A DNA stretch of 64,000 nucleotides from Chloroflexota bacterium (GTDB taxonomy: Bacteria; Chloroflexota; Anaerolineae; Anaerolineales; Anaerolineaceae). Location: the NCBI GenBank assembly GCA_004347695.1, contig SLTK01000007.1, forward strand, positions 970,823 to 1,034,822, given 5' to 3'. Position numbers and translations under genes: made by a program. Numbering within the stretch: position 1 is the first letter of the stretch; the number at the start of each line of letters is the position of its first letter. Shown piece by piece: positions 11,889-55,542 of this stretch. Under the pieces are notes generated by a model. That model was not told the DNA's origin. It ran no database searches and worked only from the letters and a program-made list of their open reading frames with translations.

Positions 11889-11918
11889 CCTGTGCGCGCT
11901 GCTCTCGACGAGGTGCTT

Positions 11919-14408
11919 ATGCCAAAAATGGTAACGTTGACGATTGATAACCATCCGGTGACCGTCCCCCAGGGAACGGTGGTGGTGGACGCGGCGAAAA
12001 AAATTGGTGTGGATATTCCGGTTTTCTGCTACCACCCCAAGATGGAACCGGTCGGTATGTGCCGATTGTGCCTGGTGGAAATTGGCCGTCCGATGGTCGA
12101 CCGCGCCACCGGTCAACCGCTGATGAATGAAGACGGCACGCCTAAAGTGCAATTTGGACCCAAGCTGGAGACCGGCTGCACCACGCCGGTTTCTGAAGGC
12201 ATGGTGGTACACACCCAGACGGATGGGGTGACTTCAGCGCGCAAGGATATTCTCGAGTTCCTGCTCACCTCGCACCCGCTGGACTGCCCGGTGTGCGACA
12301 AAGGCGGCGAGTGCCCGCTGCAAAACCTGACCATGCGTCACGGCCCGGGCAATTCACGCTTCCTGTTTGACGAAAAGCAGCACCTGGGCAAGAATATTCC
12401 GCTGGGCGAGCTGATCTATCTGGACCGCGAACGCTGCATCCAGTGTGCGCGCTGCGTGCGTTTTCAGTCTGATGTGGTCGATGACCCGGTTATCGGTTTC
12501 TACAACCGTGGGCGTAAGCTGGAAATCATGTCCAACTCCACCCCCGGCTTTGACTCGATCTTCTCCGGTAACACCACTGATATTTGCCCGGTTGGGGCGC
12601 TGACCACCGCGGATTTCCGCTTCGGCGCCCGCCCATGGGAACTCAAATCAGCCGCCTCGATCTGCACGCACTGCCCGGTTGGTTGCAACCTGACCGTCAA
12701 CGTGCGCCGCGAGGCCAAAAGCGGCGGTGACGTGGCCATCAAACGCATCATGCCGCGTCAGAACGAGAGCGTCAACGAAATTTGGATTTGCGACAAAGGC
12801 CGCATGGCTTATCACTATGCCGAAAGCAAGGAACGTCTGACCAGCCCATTGGTGCGGAAGGGTGCCGACCTGCAACTTGTTTCCTGGGACGAGGCGCTTG
12901 ACCTGGCTGCTGAAAAAATTCGTTCCGCCGGACAATTGGTCACCCTGGCGGGCGGGCGGCTCTCGAATGAGGATCTTTTCAATTTGGTTCAGGTGACCCA
13001 AACGGTTAACGGCCGCGCGCTGCTCTACACCCACATGGCCGGCGGCGACCTGGTTGCCCGTTACGGGTTGCCTGAGGGCAGCGACCTTGGCGCGCTTGGC
13101 AAAGGTGATGCAATCCTGGTCATCGCCAGCGATTTGCATCAGGAAGCGCCAGTCTGGTGGCTGCGGCTCAAGCAGGCAGCCAAACGCGGCGCTGAATTGA
13201 TCGTGCTCAATCCGCGCGAGACGCGCCTGGATAAATTCGCCGGGCATGTTGTGCGCTACCCCTATGGACAGGAAGTTGAGACCCTCTCCGCCTTCCTGCC
13301 TGGCGCGCAGGTGCCTGAAGCGCTGCAGGGGGTTGTTTCCGCCTTCCAGGCAGCCGAAAATGTGGTCGTCTTTTATGGCAGCGAAGGTCTCGGCCTGGAC
13401 GGATCGCAGGCCGTGGCTCAAACAGCCGCTGCGCTGGTCTTCTCCCGCGGGAAAACCGGGCAGCCCAATAACGGCCTGGTGGCGGTTTGGCCTAACGGCA
13501 ATACTCAGGGTGCCTGGGACATGGGTTTCAAACCGTCTGCCGATTTGGCCAGCGCAGTGCGCACCGCCGATGTTTTGTGGGCGGCTGCGGTTGACCCGGC
13601 CGGTGACGACCCGGCTCTGGCTGAGGCCGTGGACGGCGCTAATTTCGTTATCGTCCAGGAACTGTTCCTGAGCGAAACAGCTCGCCGCGCCGATATTGTT
13701 TTCCCGGCCCAATCCTTTGCCGAACGCGAGGGAACGGTCACGTCTGGCGAATTGCGCGTGCAGCGTTATTACCCTGCCATCCGGCCAGATGCCAACACCC
13801 GGCCCGATTTTGCCATTTCCGCCCAGATCGGCTTGCGGCTTGGCCTGAAACTCGAAACCAGTGTGCCGTCATTGGCGCTGCTGCAGGCAGTCGAGAAGGT
13901 CCCGACCTACACTGGCGTGAATTACCAGCGCCTGGCTGAAGTGGCCGAACAGTGGCCGATCTTTGGGCGCAAGGATATGTACTACGGCGGCACAGGCTAT
14001 GCCAACTCGCAAGGGTTGGGCGTCAAACTGGCGCTGGCGGCGGATGGGATCAACCCGCATGCTGCCAAAGAAAGCGCCGGGATGCCGCCGGCTGCGGTCA
14101 ACGGCCTGGTGTTGGTGCCGGTGACTCGCCTGCTCGACCGCGGCGCCACAGTCATGCCCTCCACGCTGCTGCACCAGCGCCTGGCGGACAAAGTTTTGCA
14201 GCTTCACCCGCGCACCGCTGAAAAGCTGGGGCTCAATGCGGATGGCGATGTGGTTGTTGCAGCGAACAACTGGACGGTGGAAGCGCGCATCCAGCTCGAT
14301 GAAAAAGTTCCGGTCGGTGTGGCGCTTGCGCCGCGCAGCACTGGTTTTCCGGTTTCGGCGCCGCTGGCAGCGGCCGTTACTTCACGGGTCGCGGTGCCCG
14401 AGGTTTAA
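11919..14408 (+). CDS. nuoG: NADH-quinone oxidoreductase subunit G (75 kDa)
   Basis: 829-residue subunit with an N-terminal 2Fe-2S ferredoxin domain (VFCYHPKMEPVGMCRLC), the His/Cys cluster region (DCPVCDKGGECPLQN), a CIQCARCVRFQ cluster and a molybdopterin-oxidoreductase-like domain. CTHCPVGC followed later by the Cys in IWICDKGR is the fourth motif, the ligand set of the extra cluster N7 known from E. coli and Thermus. The molybdopterin-type domain is likely empty. The ATG at 11919 is preferred over 11892 because the ferredoxin fold begins right after it (MVTLTIDNHPVTVPQGT). Confidence 0.95.
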   Translation: MPKMVTLTIDNHPVTVPQGTVVVDAAKKIGVDIPVFCYHPKMEPVGMCRLCLVEIGRPMVDRATGQPLMNEDGTPKVQFGPKLETGCTTPVSEGMVVHTQTDGVTSARKDILEFLLTSHPLDCPVCDKGGECPLQNLTMRHGPGNSRFLFDEKQHLGKNIPLGELIYLDRERCIQCARCVRFQSDVVDDPVIGFYNRGRKLEIMSNSTPGFDSIFSGNTTDICPVGALTTADFRFGARPWELKSAASICTHCPVGCNLTVNVRREAKSGGDVAIKRIMPRQNESVNEIWICDKGRMAYHYAESKERLTSPLVRKGADLQLVSWDEALDLAAEKIRSAGQLVTLAGGRLSNEDLFNLVQVTQTVNGRALLYTHMAGGDLVARYGLPEGSDLGALGKGDAILVIASDLHQEAPVWWLRLKQAAKRGAELIVLNPRETRLDKFAGHVVRYPYGQEVETLSAFLPGAQVPEALQGVVSAFQAAENVVVFYGSEGLGLDGSQAVAQTAAALVFSRGKTGQPNNGLVAVWPNGNTQGAWDMGFKPSADLASAVRTADVLWAAAVDPAGDDPALAEAVDGANFVIVQELFLSETARRADIVFPAQSFAEREGTVTSGELRVQRYYPAIRPDANTRPDFAISAQIGLRLGLKLETSVPSLALLQAVEKVPTYTGVNYQRLAEVAEQWPIFGRKDMYYGGTGYANSQGLGVKLALAADGINPHAAKESAGMPPAAVNGLVLVPVTRLLDRGATVMPSTLLHQRLADKVLQLHPRTAEKLGLNADGDVVVAANNWTVEARIQLDEKVPVGVALAPRSTGFPVSAPLAAAVTSRVAVPEV

Positions 14409-15965: not shown

Positions 15966-16520
15966 ATGTCACTCGGATTGATATTTATGTACTCGGCGCT
16001 GGCCCTGGTGGTGGTCGTTTCAGGCATTGGCTTGATCACCAGCCGGAATGCCATTTATGCCGCCCTGTTCCTGGTGCTGAACTTTGTTACCGTTGCCCTG
16101 CTGTATATTGCCCTGGGCGCCCCGTTCATTGCGCTGGCCCAGGTAACGGTTTATGCCGGCTCGATCATGGTGCTGTTTTTATTTGTGATCATGCTGCTCG
16201 GTGCAGAACAATTGCCCATTGCTGAACCGCTGCGCGGTCAGCGGGTGTTGGGTATATTGCTGGCAGTTGCCTTTCTGGCGGAGATGGTGCTTTTTGTCCT
16301 GCTGCGCGGCGCTCCGACGGTCGCCGGTCAGGCGGTATCGCCTGATTTTTCCACGCCAACAACCATTGGGATGCTTTTGTTTGAGCGTTATTTGCTGCCC
16401 TTCGAGATGACTGCCGGCGTTTTACTGGCAGCCACCGTTGGTGCGATCTTCATGACCCGTCAGCCGCGCCCCGATCGAAAGGGCGCCCTCCCGGCCATAC
16501 CTGAAGAAAGCAAGGAGTGA
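15966..16520 (+). CDS. nuoJ: NADH-quinone oxidoreductase subunit J
   Basis: 184-residue membrane subunit with five hydrophobic helices. The pattern SRNAIYAALFLVLNFVTVA, APFIALAQVTVYAGSIMVLF with the pi-bulge helix and FVIMLLGAE is the family core. The soluble tail RQPRPDRKGALPAIPEESKE ends the protein. An AGGGAGGGG site precedes the ATG. The last codons contain the AAGGAG that serves nuoK. Confidence 0.95.
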   Translation: MSLGLIFMYSALALVVVVSGIGLITSRNAIYAALFLVLNFVTVALLYIALGAPFIALAQVTVYAGSIMVLFLFVIMLLGAEQLPIAEPLRGQRVLGILLAVAFLAEMVLFVLLRGAPTVAGQAVSPDFSTPTTIGMLLFERYLLPFEMTAGVLLAATVGAIFMTRQPRPDRKGALPAIPEESKE

Positions 16521-20402: not shown

Positions 20403-20412
20403 GAGGATGACC

Positions 20413-21858
20413 ATGACTCAGGCGGATTTTTTCTCCATCCTCCCCATTATCACCATATTACTGTGGGCGCTGGCGCTGTTGGTAGCTGACCTGTGGATCC
20501 CGAAGGAACGCAAGAGCATGACCGCGTTGCTGGCGGCCGTTGGGCTGGCTGTGGGAGTCGGACTTTCATTATCTCAAGTTGGGCAAACCGCGCTGACCTT
20601 CAAGGGTATGCTCATGCTCGATAATTTCGCCGTATTCCTGAATATCATTTTTTTGGTGAGCGGAATTTTGGCGATAGCCCTGAGCTACGACTACCTCAAA
20701 CGGATGGGGATCGAACGCGGCGAGTACTATGTGTTGCTGATATTTTCCATCGCGGGCATGATGCTGCTTTCACAGGCTTATAACCTGATCGTCGTCTTCC
20801 TGGCGATTGAGTTTCTATCGATCCCGCTCTACATTTTGGCCGGGTTTGCCCGGCCGCGGCTTGAATCGGAAGAAGCGGCGCTTAAATACTTCCTGCTCGG
20901 TACTTTTTCTTCCGGCTTTTTGCTCTACGGCATTGCCCTGATCTTTGGCGCAACGAAAAGTACTGGTCTGGAAGGAATCATGGCGGCGTTGAGCGCTAAC
21001 GAGGCCAATCTGGTCTTATTCATAGCCGGAGCAGCGTTGATGCTGGTTGGTTTTGGCTTCAAGGTGGCGGCGGTTCCCTTCCATGAATGGGCGCCGGACG
21101 TGTACCAGGGGTCGCCGACTCCGGCATCGGCTTTCATGGCCGTTGCAGTCAAAGCTGCCGGTTTCGCCGTGTTGTTACGCATCTTCCTGACCGCCTTCCC
21201 GACGCTGGCGCAGCAGTTAATGCCAGTGGCGTGGGGCGTCGCCGCGCTGACCATGCTGGTGGGGAATGTTCTGGCGATCAACCAGACCAATCTGAAGCGT
21301 TTGCTGGCCTATTCCAGCATCGCACATGCCGGTTACCTGTTGATGGCATTCGTTTCAGCCAGCAACCCGGCTCATACCGGACAGGCTGTGTCCGCAATGC
21401 TCTACTACCTGGTGGCTTATGGCCTGACGACCTTCGGCGCGTGGGCGGTGGTGGTTTCGCTCGAACAGGCTGAAGGCAAAGGGCTGGAGCTGGAGGATTA
21501 CGCGGGGGTCGGGCAAAAATACCCCTGGCTGGGCGTGGCCATGCTGGTGTTTATGCTCTCGCTCTCAGGCATCCCGCTGACGATTGGGTTCTGGGGTAAG
21601 TTCTTCCTGTTCCGCACTGCCGTGGAGGCTGGTTTCACCAGTCTGGCGCTGGTCGGCTTGTTCACTTCGCTGGTATCCGTTTTCTACTACCTGCGGGTGG
21701 TGGTGTACATGTTCATGCGTCCGGGCGAGCCGCGTGTGCGCCGGGACGGCTGGCTGAGCCTGGTGGCAGTCGGCGCTGCTGTGGCAGTGGTGCTGCTCAG
21801 CGTGTTGCCATCCCGCTTGCTCGACATGGCTGCTCAGGCGGTGTTACGTCTGCAATAA
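20413..21858 (+). CDS. nuoN: NADH-quinone oxidoreductase subunit N
   Basis: 481-residue antiporter-like subunit, the last gene of the operon. Core motifs: NLIVVFLAIEFLSIPLYILAGF with the membrane Glu, FGFKVAAVPFHEWAPDVYQGSPTP with Lys, and NLKRLLAYSSIAHAGYLLM. The ATG at 20413 sits 6 nt after AGGAGG; the ATG at 20407 touches it and is less likely. The final 33 bp (21829-21861, coding AAQAVLRLQ and stop) recur at 23368-23400 with one silent change, so the gene end borders an inserted segment. Confidence 0.95.
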   Translation: MTQADFFSILPIITILLWALALLVADLWIPKERKSMTALLAAVGLAVGVGLSLSQVGQTALTFKGMLMLDNFAVFLNIIFLVSGILAIALSYDYLKRMGIERGEYYVLLIFSIAGMMLLSQAYNLIVVFLAIEFLSIPLYILAGFARPRLESEEAALKYFLLGTFSSGFLLYGIALIFGATKSTGLEGIMAALSANEANLVLFIAGAALMLVGFGFKVAAVPFHEWAPDVYQGSPTPASAFMAVAVKAAGFAVLLRIFLTAFPTLAQQLMPVAWGVAALTMLVGNVLAINQTNLKRLLAYSSIAHAGYLLMAFVSASNPAHTGQAVSAMLYYLVAYGLTTFGAWAVVVSLEQAEGKGLELEDYAGVGQKYPWLGVAMLVFMLSLSGIPLTIGFWGKFFLFRTAVEAGFTSLALVGLFTSLVSVFYYLRVVVYMFMRPGEPRVRRDGWLSLVAVGAAVAVVLLSVLPSRLLDMAAQAVLRLQ

Positions 21859-21861
21859 GGT
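21829..21861 (+). repeat. Left copy of the 33-bp nuoN-tail direct repeat
   Basis: Ends nuoN and is repeated in the same orientation at 23368-23400, 32 of 33 bases identical. The single difference is a synonymous third base (CGT versus CGC), so the distant copy still encodes the same residues. See the right copy and the finding on the insertion. Confidence 0.85.
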
Positions 21862-22056
21862 TTGTCCTGCCGAAAAGCCCACAGGCTAAGTCACTGCTCT
21901 AGCTGTCCGCGAATCAGATGTAAGCCCGTAATTCCCATCAAAATTAAACGGGTTTTTGTAGAATTTTCTCTGCAAAGTCTCGTTTGCTTATTGATACTTA
22001 CCCAATTAGCCGTTTGCTCCCCAGAGCCGAATTACCCGGTTTTCTGGTGGACGACA

Positions 22057-22971
22057 TTATAAGACGGTCAAAACAATTTTTCCGGGCGCCGTTGTTTGAA
22101 GTCGGTACGCCATGGCAGCGTTGGCTTCCTCCAGCGGGAAGGTGCGGTTCACAAAAACCTGGATTTTTCCGGCGTCGATCCGCTCTGCCATTTTCATCAA
22201 AACCTCGGCGTTTGGCCAGGCCGCGAGCCCCATGCTGCGAATACCGCGCCGTTGCGGTTCATCCTGAGGTGTTTCCCCCAGGAGTGAAGTAACATACCGC
22301 CCGCCGGGTTTGAGTACATTGTAGGAACGGTTCATCAGCTCGCCGCCGACCAAATCGAGGACGGCATCTACATCCTTGACGATGTCCTCAAACCACTCAT
22401 TTGTCGAGATGAACTGGTCGATCCCTAATTTATGGCCATGCTCGGCTTTTTCTGGTATATCCGTCCCATAAACAAATACGCCTTCAGCCTTGGCGAGTTG
22501 CGTAGCTATGCCGCCGACATTGCCCGCTGCGCCATGGATCAACAGGCGTTCGCCGCGCTTCACTTCCAGCAGCTCAAACAATGATTTCCAGGCAGCCATA
22601 GCTGGCAGCGGAGCGGCTGCTGAAGTGACAAAATCCAGCGAATGAGGTTTGTGTGTTGCTTCATGTGCTTTGACGGTTATATACTCTGCGAACGCCCCGG
22701 ACCCGAGAGGACTGAGGCCATAAACGGCATCGCCTGGCCTTAGATGGATGATTTGAGAACCTGCCGACACCACATCACCGGCAAAATCTGTTCCCATGGT
22801 CAAAGGAACACTTGCCATGCCTTGTAGATATCCTGCCTGTAATGCAGCATCGAAAGGGTTAATGGAAGCAGCGTGGACACGGATCAACACCTCATCGTCC
22901 TTAGGCTGTGGTTGCGGGACATCCTCTAACACAACCGCTTTTCCCCAATCATTAAGTCGCACCGCTTTCAT
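22057..22971 (-). CDS. Zinc-independent MDR-family NAD(P)-dependent oxidoreductase (quinone-reductase-like)
   Basis: 304-residue medium-chain dehydrogenase/reductase. GroES-like N-terminal half with VLIRVHAASINPFDAALQAGY, TMGTDFAGDVVSAG and GDAVYGLSP; Rossmann half with LLIHGAAGNVGGIATQLAKAEGVFVYG (AxGxVG-type nucleotide loop). The catalytic-zinc Cys and structural-zinc cysteines are absent, as in quinone oxidoreductase members. Likely reduces quinones or activated alkenes with NADPH in the cytoplasm. It is the only gene in a segment flanked by copies of the nuoN tail. It lies convergent to nuoN. Confidence 0.88.
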   Translation of the reverse strand: MKAVRLNDWGKAVVLEDVPQPQPKDDEVLIRVHAASINPFDAALQAGYLQGMASVPLTMGTDFAGDVVSAGSQIIHLRPGDAVYGLSPLGSGAFAEYITVKAHEATHKPHSLDFVTSAAAPLPAMAAWKSLFELLEVKRGERLLIHGAAGNVGGIATQLAKAEGVFVYGTDIPEKAEHGHKLGIDQFISTNEWFEDIVKDVDAVLDLVGGELMNRSYNVLKPGGRYVTSLLGETPQDEPQRRGIRSMGLAAWPNAEVLMKMAERIDAGKIQVFVNRTFPLEEANAAMAYRLQTTAPGKIVLTVL

Positions 22972-23367
22972 ATTCGTATTCTCCTTCCAGGGTTACAAAT
23001 GATAGAGTGTGAAGGCAAAGACCGGTACGAAGGATGTCCAAACCGAAAAAACTTCTTTCCGTCGACCCCATAAAGGAAAACGGGTTCGAATAGCTCTCAG
23101 AGGTCTGTAACTTCCCGTCTGTTGTGCTAACCAGGCCCGACCCATAGATTCAGTGCATCTCAATAATATTATCACTATTATTATCAAAATAGTAAAGAAT
23201 ACAAGAAACTTAGTGGGGCAATTTTCGTTTAGGCAGCTGAAAAGACGAGGAAGAATCGAGATTGCATAGACGCTGCGCGATAAACAGGTCATCCTAAAGA
23301 TTTAGTAATTGGCGCATAGGGCGTCATTTTGCGCCGCGACCGCCGGTCTTTTTGCGCGCTGCACACA
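22972..23367. other. Intergenic region, AT-rich, no gene seen
   Basis: Nearly 400 bp between the oxidoreductase start and the nuoN-tail repeat. It includes a very AT-rich stretch near 23160-23200. An open frame of 99 codons on the minus strand (22993-23292) has no recognisable features or ribosome site. The part near the oxidoreductase may hold its promoter, but I see no convincing boxes. Confidence 0.5.
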
Positions 23368-23400
23368 GCTGCTCAGGCGGTGTTACGCCTGCAATAAGGT
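23368..23400 (+). repeat. Right copy of the 33-bp nuoN-tail direct repeat
   Basis: Encodes AAQAVLRLQ and a stop in the same way as the nuoN end at 21829-21861, with one synonymous difference. A few bases upstream are also related at the protein level (LHT versus LDM). The repeat ends on the first base of the TATAAT that serves tRNA-Arg. Confidence 0.85.
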
Positions 23401-23405
23401 ATAAT
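23400..23405 (+). promoter_or_regulatory. -10 box of tRNA-Arg
   Basis: Perfect TATAAT ending 9 bp before the tRNA 5' end. The -35 region would fall inside the nuoN-tail repeat and is not close to consensus. Confidence 0.55.
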
Positions 23406-23414
23406 TAAGTTATC

Positions 23415-23487
23415 GCCCCCGTAGCTCAATGGACAGAGTGACAGACTTCGAATCTGGAGGTTCAGGGTTCGAATCCCTGCGGGGGCG
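23415..23487 (+). tRNA. tRNA-Arg (anticodon UCG)
   Basis: Acceptor GCCCCCG/CGGGGGC (23415-23421 with 23480-23486), anticodon loop CTTCGAA giving TCG, and T-arm CAGGGTTCGAATCCCTG. Discriminator G at 23487; CCA is not encoded. The top pair of the anticodon stem (A-G) is mismatched. Its T-arm with flank (23455-23477) recurs at 31817-31839. Confidence 0.95.
23455..23477 (+). repeat. Candidate left attachment site inside tRNA-Arg
   Basis: TGGAG, one variable base, then TTCAGGGTTCGAATCCC; 22 of 23 bases match 31817-31839 in the same orientation. tRNA T-arms are classic integration sites, and the 8.3 kb between the copies is the carbohydrate locus. Confidence 0.55.
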
Positions 23488-23502
23488 CTTTTGGCAAAAT
23501 AC

Positions 23503-31607: not shown

Positions 31608-32288
31608 TTATTGTTAAGGTCGATACTCCAGAATAATCTGAACAAATCTCTTCTCGCGAGCCGCCTTTTCATGGATGCACCACCGATTAATTGAGGTGCA
31701 GAGTGGTGCAAAACAGTTGGAATTCATGTATTTACTGGATTCTTTGGACACTATAGCCGCCACATATGGAAGGTGTGGACGTTTTGCCCCCACACATACG
31801 GTTAATAGAACATTTGTGGAGCTTCAGGGTTCGAATCCCAAAGGTAGGGATGCCCCTGATGCTTTCCAAAAAATGCCGCTTGTGCCAGAACTGCATCGCT
31901 GTTTGCCGGCAGAGCGCCTTGAATCGGTCGTTTAGATTCAACCTGGGCGGTAAGGGCTGCTGGCGAACGCTTTCAACTGAAGCTCAAGATTTTTAACGAT
32001 GGTTTGATACTTGAAATATGGGTAAATTTCCGATAAAATACAATGGCATAATTTGATCATATTTATAAACAATATCGTTTTTAGTTTTGTCCAATTCGAA
32101 GTTAACAAAACACCTGGCTGGACAACTTGAAGTCGGTTTTTAGCCTTCAAGGGTGGAAATTGTGGTCTGTCTGGTGGAAACATTTTTGGGTTGGTTTTCC
32201 GAGTTCCCCGCTTATTTTTTGGCCTTATTCGTACTCCTCCAGGCAGCATAGTTCTGTTTGTTTTCCTGGTTGGAAAACTGGAGTGGGG
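31608..32288. other. Long intergenic region with a tRNA-like fragment
   Basis: About 680 bp without a supported gene. A T-arm-like sequence lies at 31817-31839. The DNA from about 32000 is AT-rich. Short open frames here have no ribosome site and no recognisable content. A GTGGGG(6 nt) region precedes the response regulator at 32289. The region looks like the decayed edge of an island. Confidence 0.55.
31817..31839 (+). repeat. Candidate right attachment site (tRNA-Arg T-arm copy)
   Basis: Matches tRNA-Arg positions 23455-23477 in 22 of 23 bases, same orientation. The match stops within the T-stem, so the acceptor end of a displaced tRNA is not preserved. Confidence 0.55.
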
Positions 32289-48110: not shown

Positions 48111-48842
48111 ATGTTCTTCCGCCAGATCCTTCACCCTGAGCGCGCCTGCCTATCGTATTTGATCGGCTGCCCGACCCTTGGGCGCTGCGCCGTCATCGAC
48201 CCGCAGGGCAGCCCGGATACGACCGTGCAGACGGTCGCGGCGAACGGCATGCGCATCACCCACATCTTCGAAACGCACATCCATGCCGATCATCGCTCGG
48301 CTGCCAGGGAACTGCAAGCCCTGACCGGCGCGCCCATTTATCTTGGGCCCGGGACCAGGGTTGATTACGCGGTGGAGACATTGGTGGACGAGCAAGTCCT
48401 CAAGGTGGGCAAGCGCAGAATTCGGGTTTTGCACACGCCGGGGCACTCCGCAGAACATGTCTGCCTGCTGGGCGACGACTGGTATCTGCTGACCGGCGAT
48501 GCGCTTTTCGTTGGCGATGTCGGGCGGGTCGATTTAGGCGACGAGGCCGCAACCCCCCGGGATTTCGAACGCTGCGCAGGTCAGCTTTACCAGAGTTTAC
48601 AGCGCCTGCTGGCATTACCCGACTGGATCGAAATATATCCGGGCCATTACGCCGGGTCGGCCTGCGGGCGGGACCTGGACGGGAAGCCGGTTTCGACCAT
48701 CGGCCGTGAACGGCGCATGAACCGCGCGCTGGGGCTCAGCCAGCCGGAGTTCATTCAATTTCAACTGGAGAATCGTCCCGAGCTGCCCGAAGATTTCCGC
48801 AGCATCCGGCAAATGAACATGAGTGTCAATGTGTCACCCTGA
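48111..48842 (+). CDS. ETHE1-like persulfide dioxygenase (metallo-beta-lactamase fold)
   Basis: 243 residues. Metal ligands: His56, His58, Asp60, His61 in THIHADH, His112 in HTPGHSAEH, Asp130 in LLTGDALFVGDVGRVD, His179 in YPGHYAGSACG. This is the pattern of the ETHE1/Blh branch, which uses one iron to oxidise glutathione persulfide to sulfite. The segment ERCAGQLYQSLQRLLALPDWIEIYPGHY is typical. 7 bp after the methyltransferase stop. The last codons (MSVNVSP) run into the tandem repeat downstream, so the C-terminus may have been reshaped by it. Confidence 0.88.
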   Translation: MFFRQILHPERACLSYLIGCPTLGRCAVIDPQGSPDTTVQTVAANGMRITHIFETHIHADHRSAARELQALTGAPIYLGPGTRVDYAVETLVDEQVLKVGKRRIRVLHTPGHSAEHVCLLGDDWYLLTGDALFVGDVGRVDLGDEAATPRDFERCAGQLYQSLQRLLALPDWIEIYPGHYAGSACGRDLDGKPVSTIGRERRMNRALGLSQPEFIQFQLENRPELPEDFRSIRQMNMSVNVSP

Positions 48843-49270
48843 GCGCAGTGAAGGGTCTCGGCGGCAACCATCGAGATGTTTCGCTGCGCTCACTCGCAGA
48901 GTGTCCCACCCTCAGGGTGCTCTGTGAGTGCGGACAGCATGACAACAAAAGTGGTACCCAGAGCGTAGCGAAGTGTCTCGGCCACAACCATCGAAATGCT
49001 GCACTGCGGACAGCATGAGTGCCAATTTGTCACCCTGACCGAAGGGAAGGGTCTCGGTGACAACCATCGAGATGTTTCGCTGCGCTCACTCGCAGAGTGT
49101 CCCATCCGAAGGGTGCTCTGTGAGTGCAGACAACATGAGTGCCAATGTGTCACCCTGAGCGCAGTGAAGGGTCTCGGCGGCAACCATCGAGATGTTTCGC
49201 TGCGCTCACTCGCAGAGTGTCCCATCCGAAGGGTGCTCTGTGAGTGCGGACAACATGACAACAAAAGTGA
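48816..49270 (+). repeat. Tandem 120-bp repeats
   Basis: Units start at about 48831, 48951 (shortened to 76 bp), 49027 and 49147; the full units are 120 bp. Each holds CACCCTGA, a variable core, AAGGGTCTCGG, then CAACCATCGAGATG, CGCTGCGCTCACTCGCAGAG and CTCTGTGAGTGC. The left edge lies inside the end of the dioxygenase gene. The CACCCTGAGC...AAGGGTCTC type is a known interspersed repeat of many environmental bacteria; here it is stacked in tandem. No protein-coding content. Confidence 0.85.
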
Positions 49271-49537
49271 CACCCTTCGGGTGGGGCAAGCTTTGATTGA
49301 GCCTATCGAAACGCCCGCTGGCTGAGCTTGCCTGCACTGAGCTTGCCGAAGTGTCGAATTCAGGCGGGGGCTGCATACCCGACGTAGATCGCCATGCTCA
49401 CTGCGTTCGCTCGCGATGACAGTGTGGGTTTGCCCTTGCGAGGATAGCTTCGTACCGCTCATCGACAACCCGTTCTGTTTAGGCTTTGCTATACGCACAA
49501 CACAATTCTACGAACCGGCACAGGTATATCCAAAACC
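49271..49537. other. Intergenic region with inverted-repeat fragments
   Basis: Contains CACCCTTCGGGTG just after the tandem array, then at 49299-49355 a different short repeat type (CTGAGCTTGCC/GCTTGCCGAAG) of the same type as one at 51615-51660. No gene seen. Confidence 0.5.
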
Positions 49538-55293: not shown

Positions 55294-55542
55294 TCACAGC
55301 CTTTACGCGTAAAAAATAACGAATTCAGGCCATGGTTCTCGTAGAGGGCTCTCCCAAAAGCGGGCGGGCGTGGAAACCCGCCCCTACCTGTAGGGGATGG
55401 GTTCCACCCCATCCCGCATATGTGACGGAATAAATGACAAATTTATTCTTTTGAGGCAGACCCGGGTCGACATGGAAGTCGATCCCTACCAATATTGCGA
55501 TCCGCATAGGAGGAAACCCAGGTATCTGCCGGAACTTCAGCT
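55294..55542. other. Intergenic region with short palindromic repeats
   Basis: About 250 bp with GGCGGGCGTGGAAACCCGCC, CCTACCTGTAGGGG and GGATGGGTTCCACCCCATCC at 55360-55415, three adjacent palindromes of a REP-like type. No gene seen. Confidence 0.6.

What the first reader, a model, noticed from the sequence alone, without database searches (positions are those of the whole stretch)
21829..23400. Segment with an MDR oxidoreductase flanked by the duplicated nuoN 3' end
The last 33 bp of nuoN occur again right before tRNA-Arg, 32 of 33 identical with one silent change. Elements that integrate at a gene's 3' end restore that end and push the old one away. Here the old tail still adjoins the -10 box of tRNA-Arg, so originally nuoN and the tRNA were probably neighbours. 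The inserted 1.5 kb carries a single oxidoreductase and no integrase.
Basis: partly seen in the sequence, partly recalled or inferred. Interest (0 to 1): 0.6.

Follow-up and report, generated by a model that had tools for sequence, protein, structure and literature searches.

The report
Old insertion beside duplicated nuoN tail
In a relative of Bellilinea, an oxidoreductase gene sits between a respiratory gene (nuoN) and a tRNA gene that used to be neighbours, and a decayed second copy of the nuoN end still lies beside the tRNA; it is an old, fairly ordinary insertion scar, shared with a close relative, rather than a new kind of element.

Summary
The 33-bp repeat is real (21829-21861 and 23368-23400, 32/33) and occurs nowhere else in this genome. 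Relatives give the predicted precise empty site: G007 and two Thermanaerothrix genomes have nuoN directly before tRNA-Arg(TCG), with gaps of 18, 27 and 26 bp. The ancestral adjacency and the insertion are therefore well supported.

Three corrections. (1) The insertion is not private to this genome: sister genome G003 carries the same oxidoreductase, orientation and nuoN relic, so the insertion probably predates their split. (2) The relic is more than a 33-bp core. In G003 it shows nuoN homology starting 121 bp before the nuoN stop, and both relics share the same decay marks. (3) The 32/33 identity does not date the insertion. It is local to this genome (the two relics differ at 8/33), so the end was later homogenised, re-duplicated or constrained.

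The oxidoreductase alleles are far more diverged (third codon positions 48% identical) than the backbone (79-99%). No integrase was found in the insert. The geometry resembles e14 in E. coli icd, but a Campbell-type or repair-made duplication is not excluded. Interest is modest.

The parts
20407..21858 (+). nuoN (complex I subunit N), live copy with intact 3' end
   Evidence: ORF, Pfam PF00361 E 1.9e-70; syntenic with G003 and G007
21829..21861 (+). repeat copy 1: last 30 bp of nuoN plus GGT
21862..22056 (.). left intergenic stretch of the insert; does not align with the same stretch in G003
   Evidence: global score -1.5
22057..22971 (-). MDR-family (quinone-reductase-like) oxidoreductase, the only clear cargo gene
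   Evidence: no NCBIfam model reaches its cut-off, so no finer name
22972..23330 (.). leader and upstream stretch of the oxidoreductase, alignable with G003 (about 78-80% in the first 240 columns)
23331..23400 (+). decayed nuoN 3' relic; the start is the place that corresponds to the 16-bp block of the G003 relic
23368..23400 (+). repeat copy 2, the well-kept end of the relic
23400..23405 (+). TATAAT, putative -10 box of tRNA-Arg; GGTATAAT precedes the tRNA in all 7 genomes compared
   Evidence: sequence; no canonical -35 found
23415..23488 (+). tRNA-Arg (anticodon TCG)

Best explanation
An old insertion landed in the junction between nuoN and tRNA-Arg in the common ancestor of this genome and G003, after the split from G007. 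It left nuoN with an intact 3' end and put a second copy of that end (at least about 97-121 bp) against the tRNA-Arg promoter. The cargo is one MDR oxidoreductase. The geometry is that of prophage e14 in E. coli icd: the gene end is restored on one side and the old end is left as a relic on the other. My favoured mechanism is a site-specific integration of that kind whose integrase is now gone. SHOWN: the ancestral adjacency, the sharing with G003, the relic longer than 33 bp. INFERRED: a single event, the integrase, the loss of the rest of the element, and that the last ~30 bp of the relic persist because they lie over the tRNA promoter and/or were homogenised with nuoN.
For: Empty sites in G007 and two Thermanaerothrix genomes. 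Same arrangement in G003. G000 and G003 are sisters with G007 outside in a four-gene DNA tree (100/100) and a five-protein tree (92/96). G003 relic: 16-bp block identical to nuoN at the 5' border plus TGGTGGC at the same spacing, 0 of 2000 shuffles reach the score against G003 or G007 nuoN. The two relics share a ~20-bp loss and ACACAGC against nuoN. The same geometry is described for e14/icdC (PMC11148124, passages seen; PMC4759930, passages seen).
Against: No integrase was found in the insert. The live nuoN tail is no more foreign than the rest of nuoN (third positions G0-G3 0.68 in the last 123 bp against 0.69-0.88 in quarters; no clustering). The left arms of the insert do not align between G000 and G003. 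The nuoN protein tree alone groups G003 with G007 (95/94), and nuoN has 5 amino-acid sites for each grouping. Against G000's own nuoN, 9 of 2000 shuffles reach the upstream homology score, and in G000 alone it is not seen.
Confidence: 0.45

Rival explanations
1. No integrase: a circular or linear DNA from a relative carrying a nuoN 3' piece next to the oxidoreductase entered by a single homologous crossover (Campbell type), or break repair at the junction made the duplication.
For: The relic is a truncated homologous piece of at least ~97-121 bp, long enough for homologous recombination; no integrase in the insert; the live tail looks native.
Against: The gap has been invaded separately in G002/G005 without a nuoN duplicate, so the junction accepts insertions in other ways too; no donor with nuoN-oxidoreductase found: only G000 and G003 of 8 genus genomes hold the insert.
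Confidence: 0.35
2. Two independent insertions of related cassettes, one in G000 and one in G003, at the same site.
For: Oxidoreductase alleles are far more diverged than the backbone: third positions 48% against 79-99%; left arms do not align; within each genome the repeat copies share bases not shared with the other genome.
Against: The relics share the same losses and substitutions and the right junction is the same; the leader aligns at 78-80%. One insertion plus later exchange of the oxidoreductase allele explains this as well.
Confidence: 0.15
3. Chance repeat or assembly artefact.
For: None found.
Against: Next best match 20 of 33; two places only in the genome; a separate assembly, G003, has the same order.
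Confidence: 0.01

Closest known systems
Prophage e14 in E. coli icd (icdC relic)
   Same: Gene end restored on one side, old 3' end (165 bp in e14) left as a relic on the far side (PMC11148124, passages seen; PMC4759930, passages seen)
   Different: No integrase or phage gene was found in the 1.5-kb insert; one metabolic gene only; the target is nuoN next to a tRNA; the relic is heavily decayed except its last 33 bp
tRNA-borne genomic islands (tyrosine-integrase type)
   Same: Same tRNA-Arg; in G003 a tyrosine integrase gene lies 138 bp beyond this tRNA's 3' end
   Different: The insert discussed here is on the 5' side of the tRNA and duplicates the nuoN end, not the tRNA end
MDR superfamily oxidoreductases (ADH_N / ADH_zinc_N)
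   Same: Both domains above Pfam cut-offs; best NCBIfam score is the PIG3 quinone oxidoreductase subfamily
   Different: Below every NCBIfam cut-off listed, so substrate unknown

Membership tests
e14-type integrative element | Target gene's 3' end duplicated, live end restored, relic on the far side | tested here: met
e14-type integrative element | Precise empty site in relatives | tested here: met
   G007 and two Thermanaerothrix genomes
e14-type integrative element | Integrase gene in the insert | tested here: not met
   ORFs of the insert: only the oxidoreductase has a Pfam match; the 99-aa ORF has none. So it is not filed as a member, only as working like one.
e14-type integrative element | Short crossover core at the 5' border of the duplication | tested here: inconclusive
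   16-bp identical block in G003 at that border; 13/16 between the G000 copies by reading; may be mere homology
tRNA-borne island | Duplicated tRNA 3' end flanking the insert | tested here: not met
   The insert lies 5' of the tRNA and has no tRNA fragment over 10 bp: the only match there is 10 bp at 23082-23091
MDR superfamily, quinone-reductase-like | ADH_N and ADH_zinc_N domains above Pfam cut-offs | tested here: met

The most novel reading that the evidence does not exclude
In the G007/G000/G003 clade the last codons of nuoN also serve as the upstream half of the tRNA-Arg promoter (TATAAT begins 2 bp after the stop codon by sequence). An insertion at this junction then survives only if it duplicates that end, and the relic's last ~30 bp are kept by selection and by gene conversion with live nuoN: a gene end maintained as a promoter after the gene has moved away.
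Probability: 0.25. Interest if true: 0.45.

Novelty: new member of a known kind. Interest (0 to 1): 0.3.

Why it matters
It is a well-bracketed case of how a single metabolic gene enters a core operon/tRNA junction and leaves a gene-end scar, and it warns that near-identity of flanking repeats does not date an insertion. If the nuoN end really doubles as the tRNA promoter, it would show why such scars persist. Otherwise it is ordinary genome history.

Tried and rejected
Chance: rejected. Assembly artefact: rejected, G003 agrees. Recent insertion judged by 32/33 identity: rejected, since G003 shares the insert and relic. A nuoN-tail duplication with the insert that sits in the same gap in G002 and G005: not found (395 and 415 of 500 shuffles reach the score). 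Replacement of the live nuoN tail from outside: no sign. Recent mobile donor for the oxidoreductase: none; plasmid matches are all below 60% identity (3070 of 3070 records with a match, best listed 41%), phage matches likewise (38 of 38, best listed 35%). RNA family in the gap: only the tRNA itself above gathering score. The 16-bp block as a repeated site elsewhere in the genome: only the two places here. The nuoN protein tree alone (9 rows) grouped G003 with G007; four genes of DNA and five proteins reversed this; the gene at 11892-14408 was left out because it was not found in the two Thermanaerothrix loci, and the gene at 15966-16520 was in the protein tree but not in the DNA tree. Literature: Bellilinea + genomic island (1 paper, search listing only); nuoN + tRNA-Arg + insertion (1 paper, unrelated by its listing); duplicated gene end/integrase terms (4 papers, search listing only); e14/icd terms (27 papers, 8 listed; passages of two read). 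I make no claim that this case is or is not in print beyond these searches.

Full report
Observation. The window is part of a 3.30-Mb genome (G000, contig C3). The last 30 bp of nuoN and the next 3 bases (21829-21861) recur at 23368-23400 with one change, CGT to CGC, which is silent. The next best match in the window is 20 of 33, and only these two places in the genome match within 3 mismatches. Between them lies one MDR-family oxidoreductase gene on the minus strand. The second copy ends on the first T of a TATAAT, followed by tRNA-Arg(TCG).

Ancestral state. In G007 (nuoN 92% aa) nuoN ends 18 bp before tRNA-Arg, with TAAGGTATAAT at the join. Thermanaerothrix daxensis (record NZ_LGKO01000005.1) and Thermanaerothrix sp. 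(NZ_CALIMF010000032.1) have the same adjacency with gaps of 27 and 26 bp by my count on the sequence. G002 (its contig length equals that of Bellilinea caldifistulae record NZ_LGHJ01000011.1) and G005 have 0.8 kb in the gap, with a reverse-strand gene that I take for TetR-like from its sequence only, not from a family search, and no nuoN duplicate. So the adjacency is ancestral in this group and the gap has been invaded at least twice. Among the 8 genomes of the genus, 5 hold this nuoN at 71% identity or more and 2 hold the insert (G000, G003); G001, G004 and G006 had only weaker nuoN-like matches and say nothing on the junction.

Sharing with G003. G003 (contig length as in MGMG01000095.1, Chloroflexi bacterium GWB2_54_36) has nuoN, then the same oxidoreductase in the same orientation, then a relic, then TAAGGTATAATTAAG and tRNA-Arg. 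On four genes of DNA G000 and G003 are sisters and G007 is outside (100/100); five proteins agree (92/96); nuoN protein alone does not (95/94 for G003 with G007). The simplest history is one insertion after the split from G007.

The relic is longer than 33 bp. In G003 the stretch before the relic's end holds a 16-bp block identical to G003 nuoN 121 bp before its end, followed by TGGTGGC at the same spacing; none of 2000 dinucleotide shuffles reach that score against G003 or G007 nuoN, and 9 of 2000 do against G000 nuoN. The G000 relic lacks 30 bp that the G003 relic has and otherwise matches it at 68 of 81 compared positions. In G000 alone the part before the last 46 bases is too decayed to be recognised as nuoN. 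Both relics lack about 20 bp of nuoN and read ACACAGC where the three nuoN genes read ACATGGC, ATATGGC or AGATGGC, so they probably share an origin.

The 33-bp identity is a local matter. Over these 33 bp the G000 copies differ at 1, but G000 copy 2 and G003 copy 2 differ at 8, and the two G003 copies at 9, including the 3 bases after the stop. The 10 bp just upstream differ at 4 in G000. Gene conversion, re-duplication, or constraint from the tRNA promoter could explain this; GGTATAAT precedes this tRNA in all 7 genomes compared, though no canonical -35 hexamer was found with it.

The cargo alleles. Oxidoreductase third positions are 48% identical between G000 and G003 (four-fold sites 56 of 133), against 79% in nuoN (four-fold 208 of 272) and 0.79-0.99 in the backbone forward ORFs of 150 codons or more; syntenic backbone at 51.5-63.9 kb of the window is 90-92%. 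Yet the non-coding leader aligns at about 78-80% and the 25 bp next to the start codon are identical. This suggests that one allele was exchanged, or that the leader is under constraint; it is not fully explained. Outside G000 and G003 the best relative is 49% (G015), and 44% among 396 genomes of the class, so no donor is known.

Mechanism. The geometry equals e14 in icd, where the gene end is restored and a 165-bp old end lies beyond the prophage (PMC11148124, passages). But no integrase was found in the insert and the live tail looks native. I hold integrase-type insertion slightly above a Campbell-type or repair-made duplication, and mark this step as inferred.

Verdict. A confirmed observation, a partly supported reading, and an ordinary but well-bracketed insertion scar.

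Noticed in passing
window 31817-31839: A 23-bp piece matching the T-arm side of tRNA-Arg (22 of 23, same strand) lies 8.3 kb beyond that tRNA; the sugar-catabolism cluster between them has no DNA match next to the tRNA in G003, G007, G002 or G005. Possibly a relic end of an island at this tRNA.
   Followed up: partly
L007 246-688 (G002): tRNA-Arg is followed by a tandem array of 6.4 units of 70 bp, most units holding the last 22 nt of the tRNA; G005 has one similar unit after its tRNA. Unexplained.
   Followed up: partly
L033 3894-5069 (G003): Tyrosine integrase gene 138 bp beyond the same tRNA-Arg, followed by a primase-like gene (Prim-Pol): this tRNA is probably an integration hotspot.
   Followed up: partly
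window about 48830-49440 and 55330-55465: Dispersed repeats: these stretches give many short matches scattered over G003 contigs.
   Followed up: no
window about 32.3-43.2 kb: Response regulator/RND/ABC cluster is only 69-72% identical to G003 contig C96, while syntenic backbone is 90-94%: another stretch more diverged than its surroundings.
   Followed up: no
window 23155-23190 (minus strand): A GATAAT-rich stretch upstream of the oxidoreductase, partly conserved in G003, resembles a Fur-type operator (likeness recalled, not tested).
   Followed up: no
window 22972-23000: The 25 bp next to the oxidoreductase start codon are identical in G000 and G003 although the gene's third positions are only 48% identical.
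   Followed up: no
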